Position numbers and translations under genes: made by a program. From the NCBI GenBank assembly GCA_026390795.1, contig JAPLFG010000001.1:186001-250000 (forward strand): DNA of 64,000 nt, read 5' to 3'. The DNA is from Ignavibacteriales bacterium. GTDB taxonomy: Bacteria > Bacteroidota > Ignavibacteria > Ignavibacteriales > Melioribacteraceae. The notes beneath the pieces are model-generated. The model was not told where the DNA came from and ran no database searches. It was given only the letters and a program-made list of their open reading frames with translations. Positions within the stretch are counted from its first letter, which is position 1; every line of letters starts with the position of its first letter. Positions 7,802 through 50,397 of this stretch are shown here, piece after piece.

Positions 7802-7936
7802 TTGAAAAAAAATAGATCTTCTTTTTACAAATCAAATTGGTTAAATGCTTCTCATTTTGATGAAAATGTCGAAAATCAAATCAGAGAATCTGAGTTAAAA
7901 AATTTTTATTTTGTCACCGAAATTAATTCTTGCTAA
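7802..7936 (+). CDS. Possible small protein upstream of fni (44 residues)
   Basis: A TTG-initiated frame of 44 codons fills most of the 7712-7938 gap and ends 2 bases before the fni ATG. The stop TAA directly before the TTG means the frame begins exactly there. The translation begins MKKNRSSFYKSNW and ends FYFVTEINSC. It has no hydrophobic segment and no motif I recognise, and there is no clear Shine-Dalgarno. In DNA this AT-rich an open frame of this size can arise by chance, so it may be a leader peptide, a gene remnant or nothing. Confidence 0.2.
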   Translation: MKKNRSSFYKSNWLNASHFDENVENQIRESELKNFYFVTEINSC

Positions 7937-7938
7937 AA

Positions 7939-8979
7939 ATGGCTGAAAGTAAAATATCACAAAGGAAAAAAGACCATATTCAACTCTGTCTAACAGATGA
8001 AGTTGGTTTTAAAGCCAAAACAAATGGTTTTGAGAATTACGAATTCGAACATAATGCGCTAACCGAAGTCGAATTTAACAAAATAGATCTTTCCACAAAG
8101 TTTATTGGCAAGAAAATAAACTATCCGTTTTTAATTTCATGCATGACCGGCGGGACGAAAGAAGCTGAAAAAATAAATGAACAATTAGCTTTGACCGCCA
8201 AAATACTTAATATTCCAATTGGTATCGGCAGTCAGCGGCAGGCACTTGAAAATAAGAAGCATCACTCTTCATATAGAGTAGTTAGACGTAACGCCGGAAA
8301 AGTTCCAGTACTCGGAAATATTGGCGCATCTCAAATTGCAAAATCAAAAAATGGAATCGATGAAATAAAATCGCTTATTGACCTTGCTGAAGCGGATGCA
8401 ATGGTAATCCATCTGAACCCGCTGCAAGAATTATTACAATTGGATGGGGAACCGGACTTAAAAGGACTTTTGAAGAATCTTGAAAGAATTTGTTCTAAAA
8501 TTCAAACTCCAATTATAGTCAAAGAAGTTGGATCTGGAATTTCCAATTCTGTTGCCAAAAAGTTATTAGAGATTGGAGTGAAAGGAATTGATATCGCCGG
8601 AGCGGGTGGTACAAGTTGGGCCGCGGTAGAATTATTGAGAAAAAATGAAGAGGATAGCTATTTTAGAGATTGGGGTCTGCCAACTTCTTATTGTGTTAGA
8701 ACTGTAAAAGAACTGAAAAGTAATTTTCGATTTACTTTGATCGCTTCCGGCGGTATTTACAATGGAGTTGATATTGCCAAATCGATTGCATTGGGTGCTG
8801 ATCTAAGTGCTTCAGCAAGAATCATTCTTCAAGATGTAATGAAAAGTAATGTTGAAGGAGTTGTCAAATTAATTGAATCTTGGTTTTTGACAGTGAAGAA
8901 AATTATGTTTTTAACTAACTGTGATAGTATTAAAAAACTAACCAATGTTGGGTTGATTAAAAAAAAGGATTTGTTTTGA
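7939..8979 (+). CDS. fni: Type 2 isopentenyl-diphosphate delta-isomerase (FMN-dependent)
   Basis: This enzyme interconverts isopentenyl and dimethylallyl diphosphate in the cytoplasm using reduced FMN, supplying the starter for polyprenyl synthesis. Visible family marks are RKKDHIQLCL at the N-terminus, FLISCMTGGT, GIGSQRQAL, VLGNIGASQ, IVKEVGSGIS and the FMN phosphate-binding GIDIAGAGGTSWAAVE, then ASGGI and GADLSASAR near the end. The 346-residue length is normal. I start at the ATG at 7939 (MAESKISQRKKDH); a TTG three codons earlier is possible. The stop overlaps the TTG start of the polyprenyl synthase by 4 bases, so the substrate-forming and substrate-using enzymes are translationally coupled at the head of a long operon. 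Confidence 0.93.
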   Translation: MAESKISQRKKDHIQLCLTDEVGFKAKTNGFENYEFEHNALTEVEFNKIDLSTKFIGKKINYPFLISCMTGGTKEAEKINEQLALTAKILNIPIGIGSQRQALENKKHHSSYRVVRRNAGKVPVLGNIGASQIAKSKNGIDEIKSLIDLAEADAMVIHLNPLQELLQLDGEPDLKGLLKNLERICSKIQTPIIVKEVGSGISNSVAKKLLEIGVKGIDIAGAGGTSWAAVELLRKNEEDSYFRDWGLPTSYCVRTVKELKSNFRFTLIASGGIYNGVDIAKSIALGADLSASARIILQDVMKSNVEGVVKLIESWFLTVKKIMFLTNCDSIKKLTNVGLIKKKDLF

Positions 8980-9968
8980 ATACCGAGTCAGTGCGATACG
9001 GAAAAATTTATAATAGAGAAATAGTAAAAATCGAAAAACGATTGAGTGCGTTAATCTTAAATAAAGAACCAAAATCTTTATATGAACCGTGCTCTTACAT
9101 TTTAAACGGAGGTGGAAAGCGATTGCGTCCATTTCTTGTTCTAATTTCTGCAAAAGCAGTTGGCGGAAATTTTAAAAATGTATATAATGCTGCTACAGCA
9201 GTTGAAGTCCTTCATAATTTTACACTTGTTCACGATGACATTATGGATAACTCAACTAAGAGACGCGGACACCCAACGCTTCATCATAAATATGATTTGA
9301 GTACAGCTATTCTCGCGGGAGACAGTTTGATTGCTCTTGCATATGAAAGTCTTCTCAAAGATTCAAAACATCATACCGCAGAAATTGTTTCAACTTTTAC
9401 CCGTGGTGTAATAGAAGTATGCGAGGGACAAAGTTTGGACAAGGAATTCGAGATTCGTCAAAGTGTAACGATCAATGAATATGAAAAGATGATTTACAAG
9501 AAGACAGCAGCGCTTGTTCGAATGTGCTGTTCTGTTGGTGCACAATTATGTAATGCAACTAAAGAGCAAATTAAAATTGTTTCTGAGTATGGAAAAAATC
9601 TAGGTATGGCATTTCAGATTCAAGACGATCTTCTTGATATAATGGCGGAAGAGAATCAATTTGGAAAAACTGTTGGAAGCGATCTTCTTGAAGGGAAGAA
9701 AACTTACCTTTTTTTGCTTGCTTTGGAAAAAGCAAAAGGAAAGGAAAAATATGATCTGCTGAAAGTGATACAGAAAAAGGGAATTGAACGATCAGAAATC
9801 GAAAAATATCGCAATCTTTATATTAAGTTAGGTGTGTTAAAAGATGCCGAGCGAGAGATAATGAAATACACTAAATTAGCTTTGAAAAATTTATCACTAT
9901 TGCCAAATGATGAAGGAAAATCTCTGATGTATTGGTTGGCGAACATCCTAATTAATCGAGACAAATGA
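8976..9968 (+). CDS. All-trans polyprenyl diphosphate synthase
   Basis: A 330-residue head-to-tail prenyltransferase that condenses isopentenyl diphosphate onto an allylic primer. The first aspartate-rich motif is VHDDIMD, without the two-residue insertion of bacterial FPP synthases, and the second is QDDLLD followed by KTVGSDLLEGKKTYL; the GGGKRLRP motif binds substrate diphosphate. Phe-Thr sits at -5/-4 before the first motif, which in this family tends to limit the chain to short or medium length, but the product (GGPP versus a quinone side chain) cannot be settled from sequence alone. The start is TTG inside a TTGA overlap with the fni stop, and the stop overlaps the ptsH ATG (ATGA), so it is coupled on both sides. 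Confidence 0.9.
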   Translation: MNTESVRYGKIYNREIVKIEKRLSALILNKEPKSLYEPCSYILNGGGKRLRPFLVLISAKAVGGNFKNVYNAATAVEVLHNFTLVHDDIMDNSTKRRGHPTLHHKYDLSTAILAGDSLIALAYESLLKDSKHHTAEIVSTFTRGVIEVCEGQSLDKEFEIRQSVTINEYEKMIYKKTAALVRMCCSVGAQLCNATKEQIKIVSEYGKNLGMAFQIQDDLLDIMAEENQFGKTVGSDLLEGKKTYLFLLALEKAKGKEKYDLLKVIQKKGIERSEIEKYRNLYIKLGVLKDAEREIMKYTKLALKNLSLLPNDEGKSLMYWLANILINRDK

Positions 9969-10228
9969 TTGAACGCAAAATTAAAATAATAAATAATGCA
10001 GGCTTGCATACGCGACCTGCTGCTAATATTGTTAAATTAGCATCGAAATATAAATGCGAATTTTTCTTAATCAAAGACGGCTTGAACATCAACGGAAAGA
10101 GTATAATTGGAGTTATGACTCTTGCAGCTGAAAAAGGGTCTGAAATTACTTTGATATTCGATGGTGTTGATGAAGAGCAGGCTTCAAACGAAATAGTCGA
10201 TTATTTCAATAGAGGATTTGACGAGTAA
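9965..10228 (+). CDS. ptsH: HPr family phosphocarrier protein
   Basis: An 87-residue HPr that passes phosphate from enzyme I to downstream PTS acceptors. The catalytic His15 lies in AGLHTRPAA and the regulatory Ser46 in NGKSIIGVMTLAA, so both the PEP-dependent site and the HPr-kinase site are intact. This matters because an HPr kinase gene is present at 49387-50397. The ATG overlaps the previous stop (ATGA) and enzyme I follows 4 bases after the stop. No enzyme IIA, IIB or IIC is found in the window, so the likely role is regulatory (metabolic sensing through Ser46 and His15) rather than sugar import; that last step is inference. Confidence 0.95.
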   Translation: MIERKIKIINNAGLHTRPAANIVKLASKYKCEFFLIKDGLNINGKSIIGVMTLAAEKGSEITLIFDGVDEEQASNEIVDYFNRGFDE

Positions 10229-10232
10229 TAAA

Positions 10233-11981
10233 ATGAAATCTGATAGTGAAAATATTATGAAGGGGATTGGCGCCGCTCCCGGTATAGCAATATCTCAAGC
10301 TTTCATTTACAAGAAAGAAAAAGAAGAAATTACAAATGAAGCGATTACAGATATTGATGAAGCACTTGAAAACCTCGATACAGCTCTCGAAAAATCCAAA
10401 AAAGAATTAAGAAAAATATTTTCACTTGCTGTTGATAAGCTGGGCGAGAAACGTGCGGCAATTTTCGATGCGCAGATTATGATCCTTGACGATCCGATCT
10501 TAGTATCAACTTTGCAAAATAGAATTAAAAAAGAAATGCGTATTCCTGAATACATTGTTAACGATGAAATTTCCAAATATACCGACTTGATGAATCGATC
10601 TCATGAACCATATATGAAAGAACGCTCGCATGATATCGAAGATATCAAAAATAGAATCATCCGCAATCTCAAAAAGAAAAAATGGAAATCAAAAATAACA
10701 AGTGACGTTGTTGTTGTTACCTCATTTGTTTCGCCTTCAGATACAGTTCTTTTCTCGCGTGTAAACGTTAAGGGTTACGTGACTGATTTTGGTGGTTTGA
10801 CTTCACATGCAGCGATTGTTGCCCGTTCACTTAACATTCCCGCCGTTGTAGGATTGCATGATGCTTCCAACAGAATAAAAGAAGGGGATTTGCTAATTAT
10901 TGACGGGTTCAAAGGAGAAGTTTTAATTAATCCGGATGAAAAACAACTTCACTACTATCAGAAGAAAATTAATCAGTTACAAAAGCAGGATACCGAATTA
11001 AATAAACTTCGAGAACTGCCCGCAATTACGCTTGATGGAAAAGAGATTCAACTCTATGCAAATCTTGAACTGATTGACGAAATCGAATTAATCAATCAGA
11101 ATGGTGCAAAGGGTATTGGACTTGTTCGAACCGAACAATTGTTCGAAGAATATGAAGCATTCCCGGATGAAGATGAACAATACAAAGTTTACCAGACTAT
11201 TGCCGAAAGGATCTATCCGGAAACTGTCATTATCCGTACTTTTGATATTGGAGGAGACAAAGTTTTACCGGTTGATTTTAAAGAACCTAATCCGTTTCTC
11301 GGATGGCGCGGAATCAGACTTCTTCTTGATAGTCCCCAGCTCTTCAAGTCGCAGATTCGTGCAATTTTAAGAGCGAGCTCACATAAAAATTTGAAATTAA
11401 TGTTACCAATGATCACATCAATGCTTGAAATTAAAAAATCAAAAGAAATTATTAATTCGTGTAAAGAAGAGTTAAGAAAGGAAGGTAAAGGTTTCGATAA
11501 ACATATCGGTGTTGGTATAATGATCGAGGTTCCTTCTGCAGCTGTTTTAATTAATGATTTTGCAGAAGAAGTAGATTTTGTTAGTATCGGCACGAATGAT
11601 CTAATCCAATATATTCTTGCGGTTGACCGTGGGAATGAAATTGTTTCGAGTCTTTATCAAGAATTTCATCCGGCAGTTGTTAGAACATTACACCACATTA
11701 TTAGCGAAGGTAAAAAAGCCGGAACTATGGTCAGTATGTGCGGAGAGATGGCTGCTGATCCGTTTGCAGTCCCATTACTAATCGGTCTTGGATTGGACTC
11801 GATTAGTATTTCAGCTTCGGCGGTGCCGTTAATAAAAAAAATTATTAGAAATCTTAATTTTAAAGAACTGCAAATGCTTGCGGCTGAATGTCTGGTCTTC
11901 AAAACTGAAAAAGAAATTAATAATCGTATGCGCCATTTCTTTAATGAAAAAGAAAAAGACCATATTAAAAACTTATATTGA
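10233..11981 (+). CDS. ptsI: PTS enzyme I (phosphoenolpyruvate-protein phosphotransferase)
   Basis: A 582-residue cytoplasmic enzyme that autophosphorylates from PEP and transfers phosphate to HPr. Order of parts: N-terminal GIGAAPGIAI strand, HPr-binding helices, the swivelling phosphohistidine domain with His192 in GGLTSHAAIVAR, then the PEP-binding barrel with GLVRTEQLF, TFDIGGDK, NPFLGWRGIR, EVPSA, GTNDLIQYILAVDR and catalytic Cys503 in VSMCGEMA. Length is normal. I take the ATG at 10233; a TTG at 10218 would overlap ptsH by 11 bases. The stop TGA is part of the TTGAGGT sequence that serves as the ribosome binding site of the next gene. Confidence 0.95.
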   Translation: MKSDSENIMKGIGAAPGIAISQAFIYKKEKEEITNEAITDIDEALENLDTALEKSKKELRKIFSLAVDKLGEKRAAIFDAQIMILDDPILVSTLQNRIKKEMRIPEYIVNDEISKYTDLMNRSHEPYMKERSHDIEDIKNRIIRNLKKKKWKSKITSDVVVVTSFVSPSDTVLFSRVNVKGYVTDFGGLTSHAAIVARSLNIPAVVGLHDASNRIKEGDLLIIDGFKGEVLINPDEKQLHYYQKKINQLQKQDTELNKLRELPAITLDGKEIQLYANLELIDEIELINQNGAKGIGLVRTEQLFEEYEAFPDEDEQYKVYQTIAERIYPETVIIRTFDIGGDKVLPVDFKEPNPFLGWRGIRLLLDSPQLFKSQIRAILRASSHKNLKLMLPMITSMLEIKKSKEIINSCKEELRKEGKGFDKHIGVGIMIEVPSAAVLINDFAEEVDFVSIGTNDLIQYILAVDRGNEIVSSLYQEFHPAVVRTLHHIISEGKKAGTMVSMCGEMAADPFAVPLLIGLGLDSISISASAVPLIKKIIRNLNFKELQMLAAECLVFKTEKEINNRMRHFFNEKEKDHIKNLY

Positions 11982-11988
11982 GGTAAAA

Positions 11989-13017
11989 ATGAATTTGCAA
12001 GAAATGATGTCGAAATTGGATACTGAAAATCAGTTCAAAGTATTAACTAATTCGTATCAACAAATAGAATATGCGTGGAATAATGATTTCGATGTTTCAA
12101 CAATAGATAAGTCGAAAATTAAAAATATTATTGTCACTGGCCTTGGCGGTTCAGCAATCGGCGGGGAACTCCTTCAAAACTTTTTTAGATCGGAGCTGAA
12201 CTATCCTTACCTTGTTAATCGAAATTATGAATTACCTCCTTACGCTAACGAAGAAACTTTGGTTATAGCTTCTTCATATTCCGGCAACACGGAAGAAACA
12301 ATCGCCGCACTGAACCAGGCAATTAGTAAAAAATGTAAGATCGTTTGCGTCTCAACAGGAGGAAAGATAGAAGAGATAGCAAAAAAAAATAATATCCCTT
12401 TTGCCAAATTGTTGAAAGGATTTCAACCGAGGTTCGCACTTTGGATAAATTTTTTTACATTGCTAAAGACACTTCATTCGTTGAAATTAGTACCGGATCA
12501 AACAGAAAATGTACGACAAGCAATTGAGCTGTTAAAGCGAAAAGGAACCGAATATTCAAAACCGACCAATGAAGCTTTAGAAATTGCCGAAAAAATATTG
12601 GGCTTTACACCATTGGTTTATGCTGTAAGTGATTATACATCAGCAGTTGGAACTCGCTGGAAAGGTCAATTCAATGAAAATGCTAAACAGCATGCGTTCT
12701 TTGGTTATTTGCCGGAACTTGATCATAATGAAATTTTAGGTTGGGAAGGTTATAAACCAACAATGAATTTTAAATTGATCAACATTATTGACAACGCTTA
12801 TCATCAACAAGTTAAGAAAAGATATGAATTGACATCCGAAATGGTTCGGAAAGCCGGCGGAGAAATAATCGAGGTTAAAAGCACAGAAGCTAATGCGAAA
12901 TTACGTCTGATTGATTCAATTTATCTTGGCGATTGGGCAACATATTATTTGGCATTGATGCGCGGATTTGATCCGTCGTCAATTAATAGTATAAACTATC
13001 TAAAGGCACATCTTTGA
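11989..13017 (+). CDS. Bifunctional phosphoglucose/phosphomannose isomerase
   Basis: A 342-residue SIS-domain isomerase of the bifunctional type first known from archaea. It should interconvert glucose-6-phosphate, fructose-6-phosphate and mannose-6-phosphate. Sugar-phosphate binding motifs are visible: VTGLGGSAIGGE, ASSYSGNTEE, and the C-terminal catalytic stretch FGYLPELDHNEILGWEG. The open frame extends further upstream inside ptsI, but the ATG at 11989 is preceded by the Shine-Dalgarno TGAGGT that overlaps the ptsI stop, which decides the start. Placement straight after enzyme I links PTS carriers to hexose-phosphate supply. The stop overlaps the next TTG start by 4 bases. Confidence 0.88.
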   Translation: MNLQEMMSKLDTENQFKVLTNSYQQIEYAWNNDFDVSTIDKSKIKNIIVTGLGGSAIGGELLQNFFRSELNYPYLVNRNYELPPYANEETLVIASSYSGNTEETIAALNQAISKKCKIVCVSTGGKIEEIAKKNNIPFAKLLKGFQPRFALWINFFTLLKTLHSLKLVPDQTENVRQAIELLKRKGTEYSKPTNEALEIAEKILGFTPLVYAVSDYTSAVGTRWKGQFNENAKQHAFFGYLPELDHNEILGWEGYKPTMNFKLINIIDNAYHQQVKKRYELTSEMVRKAGGEIIEVKSTEANAKLRLIDSIYLGDWATYYLALMRGFDPSSINSINYLKAHL

Positions 13018-15818
13018 TAAAAAATTGGCGGAAATATATTTGGGTATTTATTCTTATACCTCAAATTATTCCCGCCCAGTTTTACTTCTTCGGTCGCAAT
13101 AAAGTTCAATATGAAAAATTTAACTGGAAGATTCTAAAAACCGAGCATTTTAATATTTACTATTACGATGATTTCGGTGAGCTCGCTGAAATTGGAGCTA
13201 AGTTTGCAGAAGAAGCATTCGATGAACACAAGGTTAAATTCAATCATTATGTTTTAAACAAAATCCCACTCATTTTTTATAATACACATACTCATTTCCA
13301 GCAGACAAATACAATTCCCGGTTTCTTACCCGAAGGGATCGGCGGTTTTTTTGAATTTATGAAGGGAAGAGTTGTAATACCATATCTCGGAAATCTTGCC
13401 CAATTCAAACATGTTATACGCCATGAGCTGGTACATGTTTTTATGACTAACAAGGTTTATAATGTTCTTAATGATCATAGAATTACAACCGACCGAGTAC
13501 CGCCCCTATGGTTCACTGAAGGGCTTGCCGAATTTTGGTCAAGCGATTGGGACACGCAAGGCGAAATGGTGATGCGAGATGTTGTGCTTAATGGAAATTT
13601 TGTTCCTTTATCTGAGCTTGACTATTTAGGAGGATATTTAGTTTATAAAGAAGGTCAAGATTTTTTACACTTTGTAAGCAAAAATTACGGAGAAGATAAA
13701 ATTCTTTCTCTTATGGAAAATATCTGGCGGTTCAATAAATTTTCTGATGATCTTGAATTTACGCTCGGTGAAAAGATCTCTGAAATAGATGCTAAATGGA
13801 TTTACGAAACACGTCAAAGATATTTTCCTCTATATAAAGAGAACTATCCACATTTTATTAAATCAAAAAAAATCACAAATTCCGGTTTCAACTTTGGTCC
13901 AAGATTTCTTCAGCGAGGCGATAAAAAAGAGATCTATTTCATTGGGAATCACAGCGGTTACACTTCATTGATGAAAATGAATTACGTTGCAGATACAACC
14001 GAATTTGCTGAACCGGAAGTATTGATCCAAGGTGAGAAGGATGCAATTTTTGAAGCATTCCATCTTTTAGAAAACACAATTGCAGTTTCTTCCACCGGAC
14101 TAATTTCATTTGTAACTAAAAGTCAGGCGACGGATGTTCTTCATATTTATTCGATAGATGAAAAAGAAATTATTAACACTTTGAGGTTTGATGGATTAAT
14201 TAGAATTAAAGCACCAAGTTTTTCTGCAAATGGTAATCTTCTTGTTTTCTCGGCTACCGATACAAAAGGGTTTAGTGATTTATACATTTATGATTTTCCA
14301 GAAAAACATCTTACACGAATTACCGACGATTATTACGAGGATATTGATCCAACTTTCAATAAGGATGCAAGCAAAATTATTTTTTCTTCTGACCGTACCG
14401 ACGGCATCTTCAAACAAAAGTACAATCTTTTTGAGTACGATATTTCATCAAAAGAAATATCGTATATAACAAATGTGAACGCGAATATCTCCACACCGCA
14501 TTTTTCACCCGATTACAAAGAACTTTATTTCACTTGTGATTATAACGGCACTTATAATATCTGGAAAATTCCGTACGGAGAGAAGAAAGCTCAAGGTATG
14601 ATTCAAGTGACCAATTTTTTAACTAGCGTTTATGATTTTTCATTTGTTGATTCACATACTATGATAACCTCGGCATTCGAAAATTTTTCGTTTCAATTCT
14701 ACTCGCTTGATTTAAACAATACTACAGTTGGAAAATATGCTTCATTTGCTTTCGATGATATTGGCTCCAAATGGACAGTCGACAGAATTAACATTGCATC
14801 CGAAACAGATCGTCTGAAGTACGATAAAGAATACACATTGGATTATGCAGTAAGTCAGTTGATAACCGATCCCGTCTATGGAACACGCGGTGGTGCACTA
14901 TTAACCTTGAGTGATATGCTTGGTGATGATAGATATATTTTTTACATCTCGAACTCGGCAGAAATTCAGAGTGAAATCTTAGAGAACTTCAATATTGCCA
15001 TTTCGCGTGTTAACCTTAAAGATAGATCGAATTACGGTTACGGATTATTTAATTATTCCGGTCGGCGATATGACATCAGAGAGTCCGATGAATTCTTTTA
15101 TGAACATGTTTACGGCGGTTACATTTCTCTCTATTATCCTTTCTCTTCATTTGATAGGTTGGAAACCGAACTTGATATTGCTAATTCCACTAAAGATCTT
15201 GAGGCAAATTTAATTACTAGAAAATCTTTGTTAGTTACCAATACGCTTTCATATGTTCATGATAATTCGATATGGGCTTTTACAGGTCCTATCGATGGTT
15301 CACGTTTCAGACTTCTACTAGGATATACAAGCGATGTAAAATTCAGCAATGTAAATTTTTATTCGTTCATTGTAGATTACAGAAAATATTTCCGCCTTGG
15401 ACTTCGCAGCAGTGTTGCAGCACGGGCTGCACTATTTATTAATAATGGAAAAGAAGCAAGGAGATATTTTGCCGGCGGAAGTTGGGATTTACGCGGATGG
15501 AACCGCTGGTCAATCCGCGGTGAAAAATTGTGGTTGACTTCAATTGAACTGCGCTTTCCGTTGATAGACCAGTTCTCGATTAATTTTCCATTATTCGGTC
15601 TCTCATTATTCCAGATAAGGGGAGCGGCGTTTTTTGATGCTGGTTCTGCATGGGACACTAAATACAAAGAAACATTAGGAAGTATAGGGGCTGGGATTCG
15701 TATTAATTTTTTCAATGCGATTGCTCTACGCTATGATATCGGCAAAAAAATTGAAAATGATTTTTCGCAATTTCAAGCCGGATTGTTTTATCAATTTTTC
15801 TTCGGATGGGATTTTTGA
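13014..15818 (+). CDS. Exported zinc metalloprotease-like / TolB propeller / outer-membrane barrel fusion
   Basis: A 934-residue envelope protein. An N-terminal signal peptide ends near residue 22 (IIPAQF). Residues about 30-260 form a gluzincin-type peptidase MA-like domain with HELVH at 137-141 and WFTEGLAE with Glu169 as the likely third zinc ligand. Residues about 285-560 contain beta-propeller repeats of the TolB/WD40-like type (FSANGNLLVFSATD, FNKDASKIIFSSDRTDG, FSPDYKELYFTCDYNG). The last 300 residues are strand-rich with aromatic alternation and end in FYQFFFGWDF, like a BamA/D15 surface-antigen barrel with the RGWNRW signature-like stretch. I infer an outer-membrane protein with periplasmic protease and propeller; its substrate is unknown. 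The start is TTG in a TTGA overlap with the isomerase stop. Confidence 0.8.
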   Translation: MIKNWRKYIWVFILIPQIIPAQFYFFGRNKVQYEKFNWKILKTEHFNIYYYDDFGELAEIGAKFAEEAFDEHKVKFNHYVLNKIPLIFYNTHTHFQQTNTIPGFLPEGIGGFFEFMKGRVVIPYLGNLAQFKHVIRHELVHVFMTNKVYNVLNDHRITTDRVPPLWFTEGLAEFWSSDWDTQGEMVMRDVVLNGNFVPLSELDYLGGYLVYKEGQDFLHFVSKNYGEDKILSLMENIWRFNKFSDDLEFTLGEKISEIDAKWIYETRQRYFPLYKENYPHFIKSKKITNSGFNFGPRFLQRGDKKEIYFIGNHSGYTSLMKMNYVADTTEFAEPEVLIQGEKDAIFEAFHLLENTIAVSSTGLISFVTKSQATDVLHIYSIDEKEIINTLRFDGLIRIKAPSFSANGNLLVFSATDTKGFSDLYIYDFPEKHLTRITDDYYEDIDPTFNKDASKIIFSSDRTDGIFKQKYNLFEYDISSKEISYITNVNANISTPHFSPDYKELYFTCDYNGTYNIWKIPYGEKKAQGMIQVTNFLTSVYDFSFVDSHTMITSAFENFSFQFYSLDLNNTTVGKYASFAFDDIGSKWTVDRINIASETDRLKYDKEYTLDYAVSQLITDPVYGTRGGALLTLSDMLGDDRYIFYISNSAEIQSEILENFNIAISRVNLKDRSNYGYGLFNYSGRRYDIRESDEFFYEHVYGGYISLYYPFSSFDRLETELDIANSTKDLEANLITRKSLLVTNTLSYVHDNSIWAFTGPIDGSRFRLLLGYTSDVKFSNVNFYSFIVDYRKYFRLGLRSSVAARAALFINNGKEARRYFAGGSWDLRGWNRWSIRGEKLWLTSIELRFPLIDQFSINFPLFGLSLFQIRGAAFFDAGSAWDTKYKETLGSIGAGIRINFFNAIALRYDIGKKIENDFSQFQAGLFYQFFFGWDF

Positions 15819-16969
15819 AATACAGGCAAACTAAAATATTCATTCTTCTTTCGGTCTCAGTTTGGTTGATAAGTTGCACACAACCAATTGCATTTAAATA
15901 TATGTCACCAAGTGAACCCGGTTATTTTATGTTTGGAAAAAATCCCGAAAGATCATTTTATGAGAATATATCAATTAACGAAGAGTTGCAGTCAAAATGG
16001 TCTGAAGAAACGAGCGGAAGTCAAAGCAACACTTCAATAGTTATCTATAAGAATATTTTATTTGTTACCGATCTTTCCGGAAAAGTTTATGCTTTTGATA
16101 GCGAAAATGGGAAGCAGCTTGGTTATGAAAAATATTCTGGAGCCATTCCAGTTGCGCCTGTAATTAATAATCTTAGGATGTTTCTAATTCTGAACAATCT
16201 GAATGAAAGATATTCTACATTAAAAATATTCGATTTTATAAACGGGAAAATATTGAATGAGTTCAAAATTAACGGAAGTGTGCAGAATGAAATGCTGAAA
16301 ATGAAGGACGGGATTATTGTTCTTACAGATTTGGGCGAACTAATTAAATATAATTTGGTCGGAACTAAAGAGTGGAGTACTGCGACAAAAGTAAATTCAA
16401 AATCTTCACCATCGTCAAATGGGGAAGTGATACTTTTCGGAAATGAAAACGGTGAGCTGGTAGCCGCTTCCGCGAAAAATGGTGAGATTAAATATCGTTC
16501 TAAGTTAAGTGACGGTATCGAAGGCGATATTTGTATTGATGGCAACAATTCATATTTCGGTGATAATAAAGGCAGATTATTTTCAATAAATATAAATGAT
16601 GGAACTATTAATTGGCAGTTCGATTCAAAAAATAAAATCATGGTTACACCGGTTCATGATAATTCTAAAATTATCTTTGGAAATCTTGCCGGAGATATTT
16701 TCTGCCTGAATAAAATAGATGGTAAACTGATCTGGAAAACAAGAACCAGCGGTGTTATTAATACAACTCCTTTACTATTTAAAAATTTTCTGGTTCAGCC
16801 CGATGTCAATAAAAAGGTTTATTTAATTAGTACAGTAACCGGGAAAATAGAAAAGACGTATGATTTTGAAAGAAGAGTCAAACTATCACCTGTATACTAC
16901 AACGGCATTCTATATCTCGGTTCTGATAAAGGAATGATCAATGCTTATAAAACGTCGCTCAATGATTAA
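15806..16969 (+). CDS. PQQ-type beta-propeller lipoprotein (BamB-like)
   Basis: The N-terminus KIFILLSVSVWLISC is a lipoprotein signal with the lipobox LISC. The mature part holds about seven propeller blades of the PQQ-binding-like family: GKVYAFDSENGKQLG, GELVAASAKNGEIKY, GRLFSININDGTINW, GDIFCLNKIDGKLIW, VYLISTVTGKIEK and GMINAYKT. Propellers of this kind, such as BamB, act as scaffolds in outer-membrane protein assembly; a link to the barrel protein encoded immediately upstream is plausible but inferred. The ATG at 15806 overlaps the previous gene by 13 bases; a TTG at 15815 (TTGA overlap, as elsewhere in this operon) is an equally good start. Confidence 0.8.
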   Translation: MGFLKYRQTKIFILLSVSVWLISCTQPIAFKYMSPSEPGYFMFGKNPERSFYENISINEELQSKWSEETSGSQSNTSIVIYKNILFVTDLSGKVYAFDSENGKQLGYEKYSGAIPVAPVINNLRMFLILNNLNERYSTLKIFDFINGKILNEFKINGSVQNEMLKMKDGIIVLTDLGELIKYNLVGTKEWSTATKVNSKSSPSSNGEVILFGNENGELVAASAKNGEIKYRSKLSDGIEGDICIDGNNSYFGDNKGRLFSININDGTINWQFDSKNKIMVTPVHDNSKIIFGNLAGDIFCLNKIDGKLIWKTRTSGVINTTPLLFKNFLVQPDVNKKVYLISTVTGKIEKTYDFERRVKLSPVYYNGILYLGSDKGMINAYKTSLND

Positions 16970-17546
16970 GAAAGAATCGGCAATATTGTTCCTTTCGGTG
17001 TTCCTCTTGTGCAGTAGCACTTACTCACAAGAATGCAGAGCAAAAGTTGAAATCATATCTAATAAAGATAATGCGCTGGTTTTTGTCGACAGCGTCTTAA
17101 TTGGGAAAGGCAATGTTAAAACTGAATTGACAAAGGGAAGTCACTATCTTAGGATGAATGAATCATCGCTCCAATGGGGAAAATCAGAAATTAATGACAC
17201 ATTAATTATTACTGACTGCACACGGAATTATTTATTCAATTATGAGTTCAAACCCGAAAATGTTCCTACAATTAATCAGTCAAATTTTGAATTCGGAAAA
17301 TTAAAAAAGGTTGATACTTTTTTCAGCTCGGCAACTTTTAAGATCTTACTTGGCAGTGCTGCTGTACTTGGAGGCATAGCTGCATATTACAAGATCCGTG
17401 CTGATAAAAAATATGATGATTATGTCATTTCAAAGAATCAATCAACTCTTGATGAAGTTAACCGGCTGGATCTATACAGCGGAATCTCCTTTGGCCTTCT
17501 TCAAATTAACTTTGGTTATTTGATTTATAAATTTTTGTCGGATTAA
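16941..17546 (+). CDS. PEGA-domain-like exported/membrane protein
   Basis: A 201-residue protein with an N-terminal hydrophobic signal (ILFLSVFLLCSSTYSQ), then a PEGA-like surface domain (residues about 40-80: NALVFVDSVLIGKGNVKTEL, GSHYLRM) and two hydrophobic segments at about 130-148 and 178-198, with the short charged stretch RADKKYDDYV after the first. It is the last gene of the operon that begins at fni. I take the ATG at 16941, preceded by AAAGGA at a good distance; the ATG at 16962 is an alternative with a shorter overlap. PEGA domains are thought to contact the cell surface or peptidoglycan. No enzymatic motif is visible; precise role unknown. Confidence 0.65.
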   Translation: MLIKRRSMIKKESAILFLSVFLLCSSTYSQECRAKVEIISNKDNALVFVDSVLIGKGNVKTELTKGSHYLRMNESSLQWGKSEINDTLIITDCTRNYLFNYEFKPENVPTINQSNFEFGKLKKVDTFFSSATFKILLGSAAVLGGIAAYYKIRADKKYDDYVISKNQSTLDEVNRLDLYSGISFGLLQINFGYLIYKFLSD

Positions 17547-49084: not shown

Positions 49085-49390
49085 ATGAACATTAATATCA
49101 CTTCTCGCAAATTTAGAGCGAAAGAATCGCTAAAAGAATTCATTCGTGGGGAAGTAAGCGTTCTAGAAAAATATAACGATGAAATTATTTCGGCTGGTGT
49201 AATTTTGAGTTTTACTCATCTGAAAGACAGTATTAAAACTGCTGAAATTAATCTCACAGTTCCTAAAAAAATTATTACTGTTGAGACTTCAAGTGAAGAA
49301 TTTGAAAAATCGGTTACTCTTTCTATAGAAAAAATTAAAAAACAGCTTACAAAACTTAAAACAAAACGGTTGGTCAGGCCTAAAAAATGA
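49085..49390 (+). CDS. hpf: Ribosome hibernation promoting factor, short form
   Basis: A 101-residue RaiA/HPF-type protein that binds the 30S decoding centre in starvation. Opening NINITSRKFRAKESLKEFI and VILSFTHLKDSIKTAEINL match the family; the C-terminal dimerisation domain of long HPF is absent, and the end is basic (KLKTKRLVRPKK). Shine-Dalgarno GAAGGAG before the ATG. The next gene is the HPr kinase, in ATGA overlap; hpf and hprK are also neighbours in the proteobacterial rpoN cluster. Confidence 0.88.
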   Translation: MNINITSRKFRAKESLKEFIRGEVSVLEKYNDEIISAGVILSFTHLKDSIKTAEINLTVPKKIITVETSSEEFEKSVTLSIEKIKKQLTKLKTKRLVRPKK

Positions 49391-50397
49391 AAATCAATGA
49401 AGGTGCAATTTCACAAAGAGAAAGTATTACTGTAGAATCTTTTTATAACAGCATAGTAGACAGATTCAAAATACGTCTCCTAAATGACAGAGTTGGATTT
49501 GATCGTCTAATAAAAGATCCAAACTTGCATAGACCGGGTTTACCATTAGCCGGCTTTTTGGAATTATTTTCTTACAGCCGAGTTCAAGTATTTGGCAATA
49601 CGGAGATGCGTTATTTACTAAATCTATCAATTGAAGAAAGGACCCGATCCCTCGAAAATATTTTTAAATATGCTATTCCTTGTTTAATAATTTCCAACGA
49701 ACACGAACCCACACCGGAAATGCTTGAACTTGGTAATAAATATAAAATTCCGATTTTCGGATCGGCCTTCTCTACAACCAAAGCAATTTTTTTAATTTCA
49801 GATTTTCTTGATGATCAGTTTGCACCGCGCCTTTCCCTTCATGGTTCTCTTGTTGATGTGTACGGAGTAGGAATGTTGTTTGTTGGCAAATCCGGAATTG
49901 GTAAAAGTGAGGTTGCACTAGACTTAGTTGAGAGGGGACATCGATTAGTAGCCGATGATGTTGTAATTATAACCAAGAAAGGTGAAGGAATCCTTATGGG
50001 TGCCGGAACCGATATTGTAAAACATTTTATGGAACTCCGTGGAATCGGCATCATTGACATAAGAAGCATGTTCGGCATTAGAGCCATAAGATTTCAGAAG
50101 CGTCTTGAAGTAGTTATAGAACTCGAAGTTTGGAATGAACAAAATGAGTATACCCGTACAGGTCTCGATAATTCTACCACTCCCATTATGGACGTCGAAA
50201 TACCATTTGTTAAGTTACCGATCCTACCTGGAAAAAATATTACGGTGGTTTCGGAGATAATTGCTTTAAACTATCTTCTTAAACATTACGGTTATGATGC
50301 AGCAAAAGTGCTGCAAGATCGAATAACATCCAAAATTCGTCAAAAAAATGAAGAAATGAACCGTGCCGTTGATTATTTTGAACATGATTTTGAGTAA
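49387..50397 (+). CDS. hprK: HPr kinase/phosphorylase
   Basis: A 336-residue bifunctional enzyme that phosphorylates HPr on Ser46 and removes the phosphate. The Walker A loop is GKSGIGKS at residues 167-174; the catalytic Asp is in LVADDVV; the HPrK signature is MELRGIGIIDIRSMFG; the C-terminal helix carries NEEMNRAVDYFEHD. The N-terminal domain (about 1-140) is normal for the family. Its substrate is presumably the HPr encoded at 9965-10228, which has Ser46. No PTS permease is in the window. It ends the ybeY-hprK gene run. Confidence 0.94.
   Translation: MKINEGAISQRESITVESFYNSIVDRFKIRLLNDRVGFDRLIKDPNLHRPGLPLAGFLELFSYSRVQVFGNTEMRYLLNLSIEERTRSLENIFKYAIPCLIISNEHEPTPEMLELGNKYKIPIFGSAFSTTKAIFLISDFLDDQFAPRLSLHGSLVDVYGVGMLFVGKSGIGKSEVALDLVERGHRLVADDVVIITKKGEGILMGAGTDIVKHFMELRGIGIIDIRSMFGIRAIRFQKRLEVVIELEVWNEQNEYTRTGLDNSTTPIMDVEIPFVKLPILPGKNITVVSEIIALNYLLKHYGYDAAKVLQDRITSKIRQKNEEMNRAVDYFEHDFE

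What the first reader, a model, noticed from the sequence alone, without database searches (positions are those of the whole stretch)
7939..17546. One operon joining isoprenoid synthesis, PTS phosphocarriers, hexose-phosphate isomerase and outer-membrane assembly proteins
Eight genes in a row overlap or are separated by fewer than 10 bases: fni, polyprenyl synthase, ptsH, ptsI, phosphoglucose/phosphomannose isomerase, protease-propeller-barrel fusion, propeller lipoprotein, PEGA protein. Such coupling hints that PEP-dependent phosphate flow and hexose-phosphate balance are tied to making lipid carriers and envelope components. I know of no described system with this set.
Basis: partly seen in the sequence, partly recalled or inferred. 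Interest (0 to 1): 0.6.

Follow-up and report, generated by a model that had tools for sequence, protein, structure and literature searches.

The report
Conserved phosphorelay operon with envelope genes
In a large group of little-studied bacteria, the two starter proteins of a sugar-uptake phosphate relay appear to have no sugar transporter to serve and instead sit in an anciently conserved gene row with makers of membrane-lipid precursors, a sugar-phosphate enzyme and outer-membrane assembly-like proteins, which suggests but does not prove that the relay helps tune cell-envelope building.

Summary
The eight-gene row is real (window 7939-17546, +): type 2 IPP isomerase, short-chain-type prenyl synthase, HPr, enzyme I, glucose/mannose-6-phosphate isomerase, peptidase/TolB-propeller/BamA-barrel fusion, BamB-like lipoprotein, PEGA protein. 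Tight spacing alone is ordinary here (27 of 51 same-strand pairs under 10 nt). Conservation is the evidence: at class depth the prenyl synthase lies within 9 kb of enzyme I, same strand, in 14 of 20 loci, HPr in 17 of 20, the isomerase in 12 of 17, the barrel in 6 of 16; flanking MFS and polA in 0 of 19 and 0 of 15. Anchored on the barrel, enzyme I lies upstream in 54 of 57 loci with enough flank. The relay looks regulatory: HPr kinase and an EIIA_2 domain in 99 of 99 class genomes, PTS_EIIC in 1 of 99, mannose-type EIIA in 0 of 99. HPr His15 and Ser46 are invariant (90 of 90). In one family 9 of 9 genomes place a second phosphoglucose isomerase directly after enzyme I. The row is modular; parts are missing even in close relatives. 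Control of envelope synthesis remains inference. New wiring of a known kind of system.

The parts
7939..8979 (+). fni / idi2: type 2 isopentenyl-diphosphate isomerase
   Evidence: TIGR02151 387 bits, cut-off 281 (for the frame from the TTG at 7930); many homologues align from residue 4, the ATG at 7939
8976..9968 (+). pps: prenyl diphosphate synthase of short-chain (FPP/GGPP) type
   Evidence: PF00348; Phe five residues before DDxxD in 81 of 82 loci with a match, the other not aligned there; chain-length rule recalled. Best NCBIfam models are short-chain/GGPP synthases, all below their cut-offs
9965..10228 (+). ptsH: HPr with His15 and Ser46
   Evidence: PF00381, the only match in the own genome at E <= 0.001; His15 and Ser46 in 90 of 90 loci with a match (role of the residues recalled)
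10218..11981 (+). ptsI: enzyme I, 587 aa, no GAF domain found
   Evidence: three PEP-utiliser domains, TIGR01417 602 bits, cut-off 342; His197 and Cys508 in 100 of 100 loci (role recalled)
11986..13017 (+). bifunctional phosphoglucose/phosphomannose isomerase
   Evidence: PF10432, TIGR02128 and PRK08674 models over cut-off; Glu231 and His247 in 60 of 60 loci with a match
13014..15818 (+). outer-membrane fusion: HEXXH peptidase-like domain, TolB-like propeller, BamA-like barrel
   Evidence: Pfam; H137, E138, H141, E169 and E173 invariant in 17 and in 38 aligned sequences; AlphaFold2 model mean pLDDT 78.5; TolB crystal structure 1c5k Z 25.5, BamA 8xnb Z 21.7
15806..16969 (+). BamB-like PQQ-propeller lipoprotein
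   Evidence: PF13360; TIGR03300 99.6 bits, below its cut-off of 285; lipobox-like LISC read by eye; downstream of the barrel in 65 of 65 loci with enough flank
16959..17546 (+). PEGA-domain-like protein with two long C-terminal helices
   Evidence: PF08308 in 31 of 40 orthologue rows; AlphaFold2 model pLDDT 89.6, pTM 0.51
49387..50397 (+). hprK: HPr(Ser) kinase/phosphatase, likely partner of HPr, outside the operon
   Evidence: TIGR00679 358 bits, cut-off 240; PF07475 in 99 of 99 class genomes
49085..49390 (+). hpf-like gene (ribosome hibernation factor) overlapping the hprK start by 4 nt
   Evidence: ORF, name by eye, not scanned; a homologue lies beside hprK in 10 of 13 hprK loci examined

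Best explanation
This is an anciently conserved operon, in a class that I take from the record titles to be the Ignavibacteria and in some other lineages of the same phylum, in which the front end of a regulatory, apparently permease-less phosphotransferase relay (enzyme I and HPr) is encoded together with envelope-precursor enzymes (IPP isomerase, short-chain-type prenyl synthase, hexose-6-phosphate isomerase) and, as a separable block, an outer-membrane assembly-like set. Shown by sequence: the gene order and its depth; the invariant phosphorylation residues; HprK and EIIA_2 partners encoded elsewhere; no permease of the families searched. Inferred: PEP phosphorylates enzyme I, then HPr His15, then the EIIA-Ntr-like protein, while HprK acts on HPr Ser46, so that HPr's state reports PEP and glycolytic status. 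Most likely the operon scales relay and envelope-precursor supply together; HPr or EIIA may in addition bind one of the envelope enzymes, as NPr does with LpxD in E. coli. I put the co-regulated regulatory-PTS reading at 0.6 and the direct-binding step at about 0.2.
For: Depth table (same strand, expected side, within 9 kb of EI, loci with enough flank only): pps 8/8 genus, 27/27 family, 24/24 order, 14/20 class, 9/20 phylum; HPr 8/8, 27/27, 24/24, 17/20, 14/20; flanks MFS 0/19 and polA 0/15 at class depth. Barrel-anchored named loci: EI 54/57, HPr 50/54, pps 48/51, BamB-like 65/65. Pairwise distances of EI, pps, barrel and BamB-like proteins over 48 sets correlate at Spearman 0.67-0.89, as joint vertical descent would give. 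PTS inventory in 99 class genomes: HprK 99, EIIA_2 99, EIIC 1, EIIA-man 0; own genome one HPr. Residues 90/90 and 100/100. A second isomerase (PF00342) begins, by aligned ends, 263-368 nt after EI on the same strand in 9 of 9 family-f4 genomes of the search (coordinates; one confirmed by Pfam). Precedent: ptsN and ptsO lie in the rpoN operon with hpf (yhbH) and rapZ (PMC13104625 section 9), which also holds lptB (PMC4635465 passages); NPr binds LpxD; phosphorylated PtsN inhibits GlmS (PMC13104625 passages).
Against: No expression or interaction data. The barrel block is absent in 3 of 7 same-genus loci, the isomerase in 12 of 27 same-family loci, fni in 12 of 20 class loci and 20 of 20 phylum loci. 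Two of the class-depth counts include L064, where HPr and pps are 7-8 kb from EI, and the phylum barrel count includes L093 at 7.4 kb. Of 37 searched genomes without the barrel beside EI, 8 carry the operon-type barrel elsewhere (in one of them, G416, the EI contig ends about 3 kb after EI, so it cannot be judged). In divergent class lineages HPr-EI sits in other contexts, and in L084, L085 and L100 EI follows a dnaB-like gene (by eye) with no HPr found nearby. The own genome has another full-length phosphoglucose isomerase. Most of the neighbours are housekeeping genes, which can travel together without regulatory logic. EIIC families other than PF02378 and the mannose class were not searched, and such searches can miss members: the HprK control rang in only 3 of 14 named genomes and not in Bacillus subtilis, which I recall has HprK.
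Confidence: 0.6

Rival explanations
1. Housekeeping co-expression: the genes are kept together only because all are needed in proportion to growth; the relay does not act on its neighbours.
For: Most are core functions; modules are gained and lost separately; the operon-type barrel exists apart from EI in 8 of 37 searched genomes, one of them undecidable; compact runs are common in this window.
Against: Does not explain why HPr-EI in particular stays with pps across classes when flanks do not, nor the second isomerase next to EI in family f4.
Confidence: 0.3
2. A residual or cryptic sugar-transport PTS: HPr feeds an unrecognised permease.
For: EI and HPr keep their catalytic residues; one class genome, G157, does have an EIIC hit; an EIIA_2 protein sits beside a SulP-like transporter in the own genome (transporter named by eye); not all EIIC families were searched.
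Against: EIIC 1 of 99 (control: rings in 7 of 14 named genomes) and EIIA-man 0 of 99 (control: 5 of 14); the Melioribacter roseus genome paper names MFS, SSS and TonB routes for sugars, and the words phosphotransferase and PTS do not occur in its main text (PMC3534657 passages).
Confidence: 0.05
3. Two neighbouring units rather than one operon: fni-pps-ptsH-ptsI-isomerase and barrel-BamB-PEGA, with an internal promoter before the barrel. (Compatible with the best explanation, so the odds overlap.)
For: The barrel block is missing as a block in L005, L053 and L054, and in some relatives the barrel starts after a longer gap, for example 109 nt after the aligned end of EI in L014; one strict Bacteroidota-type promoter match (consensus recalled) falls at the barrel start, 13014.
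Against: In the window the junction is a 4-nt overlap; the motif is short and 3 such matches occur on the + strand of the 64 kb anyway.
Confidence: 0.35

Closest known systems
Nitrogen-type PTS (PTS-Ntr: PtsP, PtsO, PtsN) of Proteobacteria
   Same: Permease-less relay; EIIA-Ntr-like terminal protein; components encoded beside envelope and hexosamine-control genes (PMC13104625 section 9; PMC4635465 passages)
   Different: Enzyme I here shows no GAF domain (the GAF hallmark of PtsP is recalled); HprK in 99 of 99 class genomes; neighbours are isoprenoid, hexose-6-phosphate and Omp85 genes; in the own genome the EIIA-Ntr-like gene is beside a hisS-like gene (by eye), not rpoN
EI-R, the regulatory ptsI group of Comas et al. 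2008 (PMC2405797; section 9 and passages read)
   Same: Regulatory EI, thought to work with HPr and HprK, reported from Chlorobia, Chlamydiales, Planctomycetes and others, most without PTS transporters
   Different: The clusters shown there are rpoN-type ones of Proteobacteria; the paper calls the PTS absent from Bacteroidetes; the word polyprenyl does not occur in its main text. I did not place this EI on a tree
WD40-Omp85 subfamily (Heinz and Lithgow 2014, PMC4104836; passages read)
   Same: TolB-like propeller fused to an Omp85 barrel, likened there to a BamA-BamB fusion
   Different: Here an HEXXH peptidase-like domain precedes the propeller and a separate BamB-like lipoprotein gene follows; the word peptidase does not occur in that paper's main text, and its separate metalloprotease group is defined by another domain (PF00149)
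Incomplete PTS of Brucella melitensis (PMC2937029; only the abstract start in search listings seen)
   Same: PTS proteins without a permease, thought to serve regulation
   Different: Has a mannose-family EIIA, not found here in 99 class genomes

Membership tests
Regulatory (permease-less) PTS | enzyme I and HPr with intact phosphorylation sites | tested here: met
   EI His197/Cys508 100 of 100; HPr His15 90 of 90 loci with a match
Regulatory (permease-less) PTS | no EIIC permease | tested here: met
   PF02378 in 1 of 99 class genomes, none in the own genome; EIIA-man 0 of 99; other EIIC families not searched
PTS-Ntr | EIIA-Ntr-like terminal acceptor | tested here: met
   PF00359 in 99 of 99 class genomes, mostly in frames of about 155-230 aa, in some also in longer proteins or only in fragments; own 157-aa protein. 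PF00359 does not separate Ntr from fructose types
PTS-Ntr | enzyme I of PtsP type with N-terminal GAF domain | tested here: not met
   Only the three PEP-utiliser domains in the 587-aa protein; the GAF criterion is recalled
PTS-Ntr | ptsN/ptsO in the rpoN operon | tested here: not met
   HPr lies in this operon; own EIIA-Ntr-like gene is beside a hisS-like gene; one genome examined, neighbours named by eye
EI-R group (Comas 2008) | phylogenetic placement with EI-R | not tested
   No reference EI sequences were fetched for a tree
HprK-controlled HPr | HprK present and Ser46 in HPr | tested here: met
   99 of 99; 90 of 90; phosphorylation itself untested
WD40-Omp85 proteins | propeller followed by Omp85 barrel | tested here: met
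   PF07676 and PF01103; TolB 1c5k Z 25.5 and BamA 8xnb Z 21.7 on successive parts of the model
Gluzincin (MA) peptidases | HEXXH plus downstream Glu, and a match to an MA peptidase model | tested here: inconclusive
   Motif invariant in 17 and 38 aligned sequences; Peptidase_MA_2 22.7 bits, below cut-off 32.4, in the window protein but 36.8, over it, in L094; activity untested
BamB | passes the curated BamB model | tested here: not met
   TIGR03300 99.6 bits against a cut-off of 285

The most novel reading that the evidence does not exclude
HPr, through its His15 and Ser46 phosphorylation states, directly binds and sets the activity of the short-chain prenyl synthase or the hexose-6-phosphate isomerase encoded beside it, making the relay a PEP-gated valve on lipid-carrier and sugar-precursor supply for the envelope across a whole class of bacteria.
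Probability: 0.2. Interest if true: 0.85.

Novelty: new variant of a known kind. Interest (0 to 1): 0.55.

Why it matters
Permease-less PTS relays are widespread but their outputs are mostly unknown. A relay front end that has stayed with prenyl synthase, hexose-phosphate isomerase and outer-membrane assembly-like genes across classes names a small, testable set of candidate targets, and it parallels, with different genes, the proteobacterial link between PTS-Ntr and lipid A or glucosamine synthesis. The same locus also carries a conserved peptidase-like/TolB/BamA fusion of unknown role.

Tried and rejected
Compactness as evidence: rejected, 27 of 51 same-strand pairs in the window are under 10 nt apart. 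Promoter and terminator scans: 45 promoter-like sites against 39.5 (sd 7.2) expected, 8 terminator-like against 5.8 (sd 2.5), uninformative; a Bacteroidota-type motif (recalled) gave one strict match in the operon region, at the barrel start. Rfam at gathering thresholds: no match in the window. Plasmid search with HPr: 157 records, all under 60% identity, uninformative. Literature for this gene set: searches found 0 papers; no listed title or abstract start describes it (listed: 6 of 6, 6 of 6, 12 of 17, 10 of 4,205, 5 of 5, 10 of 372 papers holding the terms); the library lacks most subscription papers, so absence from print is not claimed. Annotation of record CP053447 was not available. 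No peptidase structure appears in the rows shown; the peptidase-like domain was not folded alone. In the membership of the row, fni and the isomerase are the least constant parts, so a strict eight-gene definition was dropped.
Full report
What is there. Window 7939-17546 (+) holds eight genes with gaps of -4, -4, -11, 4, -4, -13 and -11 nt: type 2 IPP isomerase, polyprenyl synthase, HPr, enzyme I, bifunctional glucose/mannose-6-phosphate isomerase, a peptidase-like/propeller/barrel fusion, a BamB-like lipoprotein and a PEGA-like protein. The HPr/EI overlap assumes a TTG start for EI; the next in-frame ATG would leave a gap of a few nt. The window lies in a 4.08-Mb genome in 5 contigs.

Is it more than chance? 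Tight spacing is common here: 27 of 51 same-strand pairs in the window are under 10 nt apart, although this is the longest such run. The stronger test is conservation. A match to enzyme I at E <= 0.001 was found in 144 of 146 relatives, 244 of 245 class genomes and 212 of 247 phylum genomes; by my reading of the rows about 135, 239 and 180 of these are below 1e-50, the rest being weak matches, probably to other PEP-utilising enzymes. A gene was counted if it matched on the expected strand and side within 9 kb of EI, among loci with enough flank. pps: 8/8, 27/27, 24/24, 14/20, 9/20. HPr: 8/8, 27/27, 24/24, 17/20, 14/20. fni: 8/8, 20/26, 23/24, 8/20, 0/20. Isomerase: 8/8, 15/27, 20/25, 12/17, 5/20. 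Barrel: 4/7, 19/27, 20/25, 6/16, 5/19. BamB-like: 4/7, 19/27, 18/24, 6/16, 3/18. PEGA: 4/7, 19/27, 18/24, 5/15, 2/18. Not all of these are adjacent: L064 has HPr and pps 7-8 kb from EI and L093 has the barrel at 7.4 kb. Neighbours outside the row serve as internal control: MFS 5/8, 17/25, 14/24, 0/19, 0/20; polA 5/5, 19/25, 0/21, 0/15, 0/16; the upstream sensor kinase 4/8, 0/24, 0/24, 1/18, 0/20. So the row, above all pps-ptsH-ptsI, outlives its surroundings.

Reverse test. Where the flank allows, EI is upstream on the same strand within 8 kb in 54 of 57, HPr in 50 of 54, pps in 48 of 51, fni in 43 of 51, the isomerase in 51 of 68; the BamB-like gene follows in 65 of 65 and PEGA in 53 of 57. 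These 80 are the closest relatives, so they say little about depth, but they were selected without reference to EI. Pairwise distances of EI, pps, barrel and BamB-like proteins over 48 sets correlate at 0.67-0.89.

Modularity, told against a fixed system. Three of seven same-genus loci (L005, L053, L054) lack barrel, BamB-like and PEGA genes as a block; in L053, whose EI is 93% identical, polA follows the isomerase directly. A profile search of 47 chosen genomes (4 with the barrel beside EI, 37 without, 6 without EI) found the operon-type barrel, above 1100 bits, elsewhere in 8 of the 37; in one of these, G416, the EI contig ends about 3 kb after EI, so seven are clear. The other 29 had no match of that strength. 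Related proteins in open frames of 1000 aa or more (over 240 bits) are in 41 of the 47, including 2 of the 6 genomes without EI; 46 of 47 have some match at E <= 1e-10, a few to the propeller alone. In divergent class lineages HPr-EI has other neighbours: a Sua5-type gene before HPr in L069 and L070, and an Omp85/POTRA protein overlapping the end of EI in L069. In L084, L085 and L100 EI follows a dnaB-like gene (by eye) and no HPr was found nearby.

What the relay is. PF07475 HprK is in 99 of 99 class genomes, the own copy in this window at 49387-50397 behind an hpf-like gene. The control for that search rang in only 3 of 14 named genomes and not in Bacillus subtilis, which I recall has HprK, so such searches can miss members. 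EIIA_2 is in 99 of 99 (control 7 of 14); the own 157-aa EIIA-Ntr-like protein is next to a hisS-like gene. EIIC (PF02378) is in 1 of 99 (control 7 of 14) and EIIA-man in 0 of 99 (control 5 of 14); other EIIC families were not searched. HPr His15 and Ser46 are present in 90 of 90 loci with a match, the EI active-site His and Cys in 100 of 100. Hence a relay that looks regulatory, with both HPr phosphorylation sites intact. It is not PTS-Ntr in the strict sense: EI shows no GAF domain and the EIIA gene is not in an rpoN operon in this genome. Comas et al. 2008 (PMC2405797, section 9 and passages) describe a regulatory EI-R group in Chlorobia and others; I did not place this EI on a tree.

What the neighbours are. 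The operon prenyl synthase has Phe five residues before DDxxD in 81 of 82 loci with a match, the last not aligned there; the other PF00348 protein of the genome has Ala there (by eye). By the recalled chain-length rule the first makes short chains, the second long ones. The isomerase keeps Glu231 and His247 in 60 of 60. The own genome also has a full-length PF00342 isomerase elsewhere. PF00342 matched in 63 of 99 class genomes; in family f4 all 9 genomes of that search carry it 263-368 nt (aligned ends) after EI on the same strand (coordinates), one checked by Pfam, with the bifunctional isomerase following in the one locus examined (L062). Other f4 genomes were not searched for it. This added isomerase at the same spot is the best hint of a functional tie. 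The fusion protein model (38 sequences, mean pLDDT 78.5) contains a TolB-like propeller (1c5k, Z 25.5, 2.4 A, 243 residues) and a BamA-like barrel (8xnb, Z 21.7, 3.4 A, 286 residues); its N-terminal domain has an invariant HEXXH and downstream Glu residues. Heinz and Lithgow 2014 (PMC4104836, passages) already define WD40-Omp85 proteins.

Mechanism. Shown: order, depth, residues, inventory. Inferred: PEP to EI to HPr to EIIA, with HprK acting on Ser46; co-expression scales relay and precursor enzymes; possible direct binding, by analogy with NPr-LpxD (PMC4635465 passages) and PtsN-GlmS (PMC13104625 passages). The plain rival, housekeeping co-expression, is not excluded. None of the literature searches listed a paper whose title or abstract start describes this gene set; the main texts of two Melioribacter roseus papers (PMC3534657, PMC5492636; term searches and passages) do not contain the words phosphotransferase or PTS.

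Noticed in passing
window 49085-50397: hpf-like gene (by eye) directly followed by hprK, downstream of topA- and xerC-like genes; a homologue of hpf lies beside hprK in 10 of 13 hprK loci examined.
   Followed up: partly
L111:3888-6491 (own genome, contig C3): A 224-aa protein with a weak helix-turn-helix match and an EIIA_2 domain lies next to a SulP-like transporter and NADH-dehydrogenase-like membrane genes (named by eye), a second possible output of the relay.
   Followed up: partly
L062:8320-9651 and family f4 genomes: A PF00342 phosphoglucose isomerase gene sits directly after enzyme I in 9 of 9 f4 genomes of the search; in L062 the bifunctional isomerase follows it.
   Followed up: yes
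L069:6961-8601: An Omp85 protein with a weak POTRA match overlaps the end of enzyme I in a lineage that lacks the usual fusion there.
   Followed up: no
L069:10625-11656 and L070:7294-8286: A Sua5-type threonylcarbamoyl-AMP synthase gene takes the place of pps before HPr-EI.
   Followed up: no
L083:6593-7240 and five other loci: In distant relatives an adenylate-kinase-like gene (by eye, not scanned; cluster of 6 loci) stands before pps where fni stands in the window.
   Followed up: no
47 genomes: Proteins of 1000 aa or more related to the operon fusion (over 240 bits) occur in 41 of 47 genomes searched, including 2 of 6 without enzyme I; a wider family whose role is unknown to me.
   Followed up: partly
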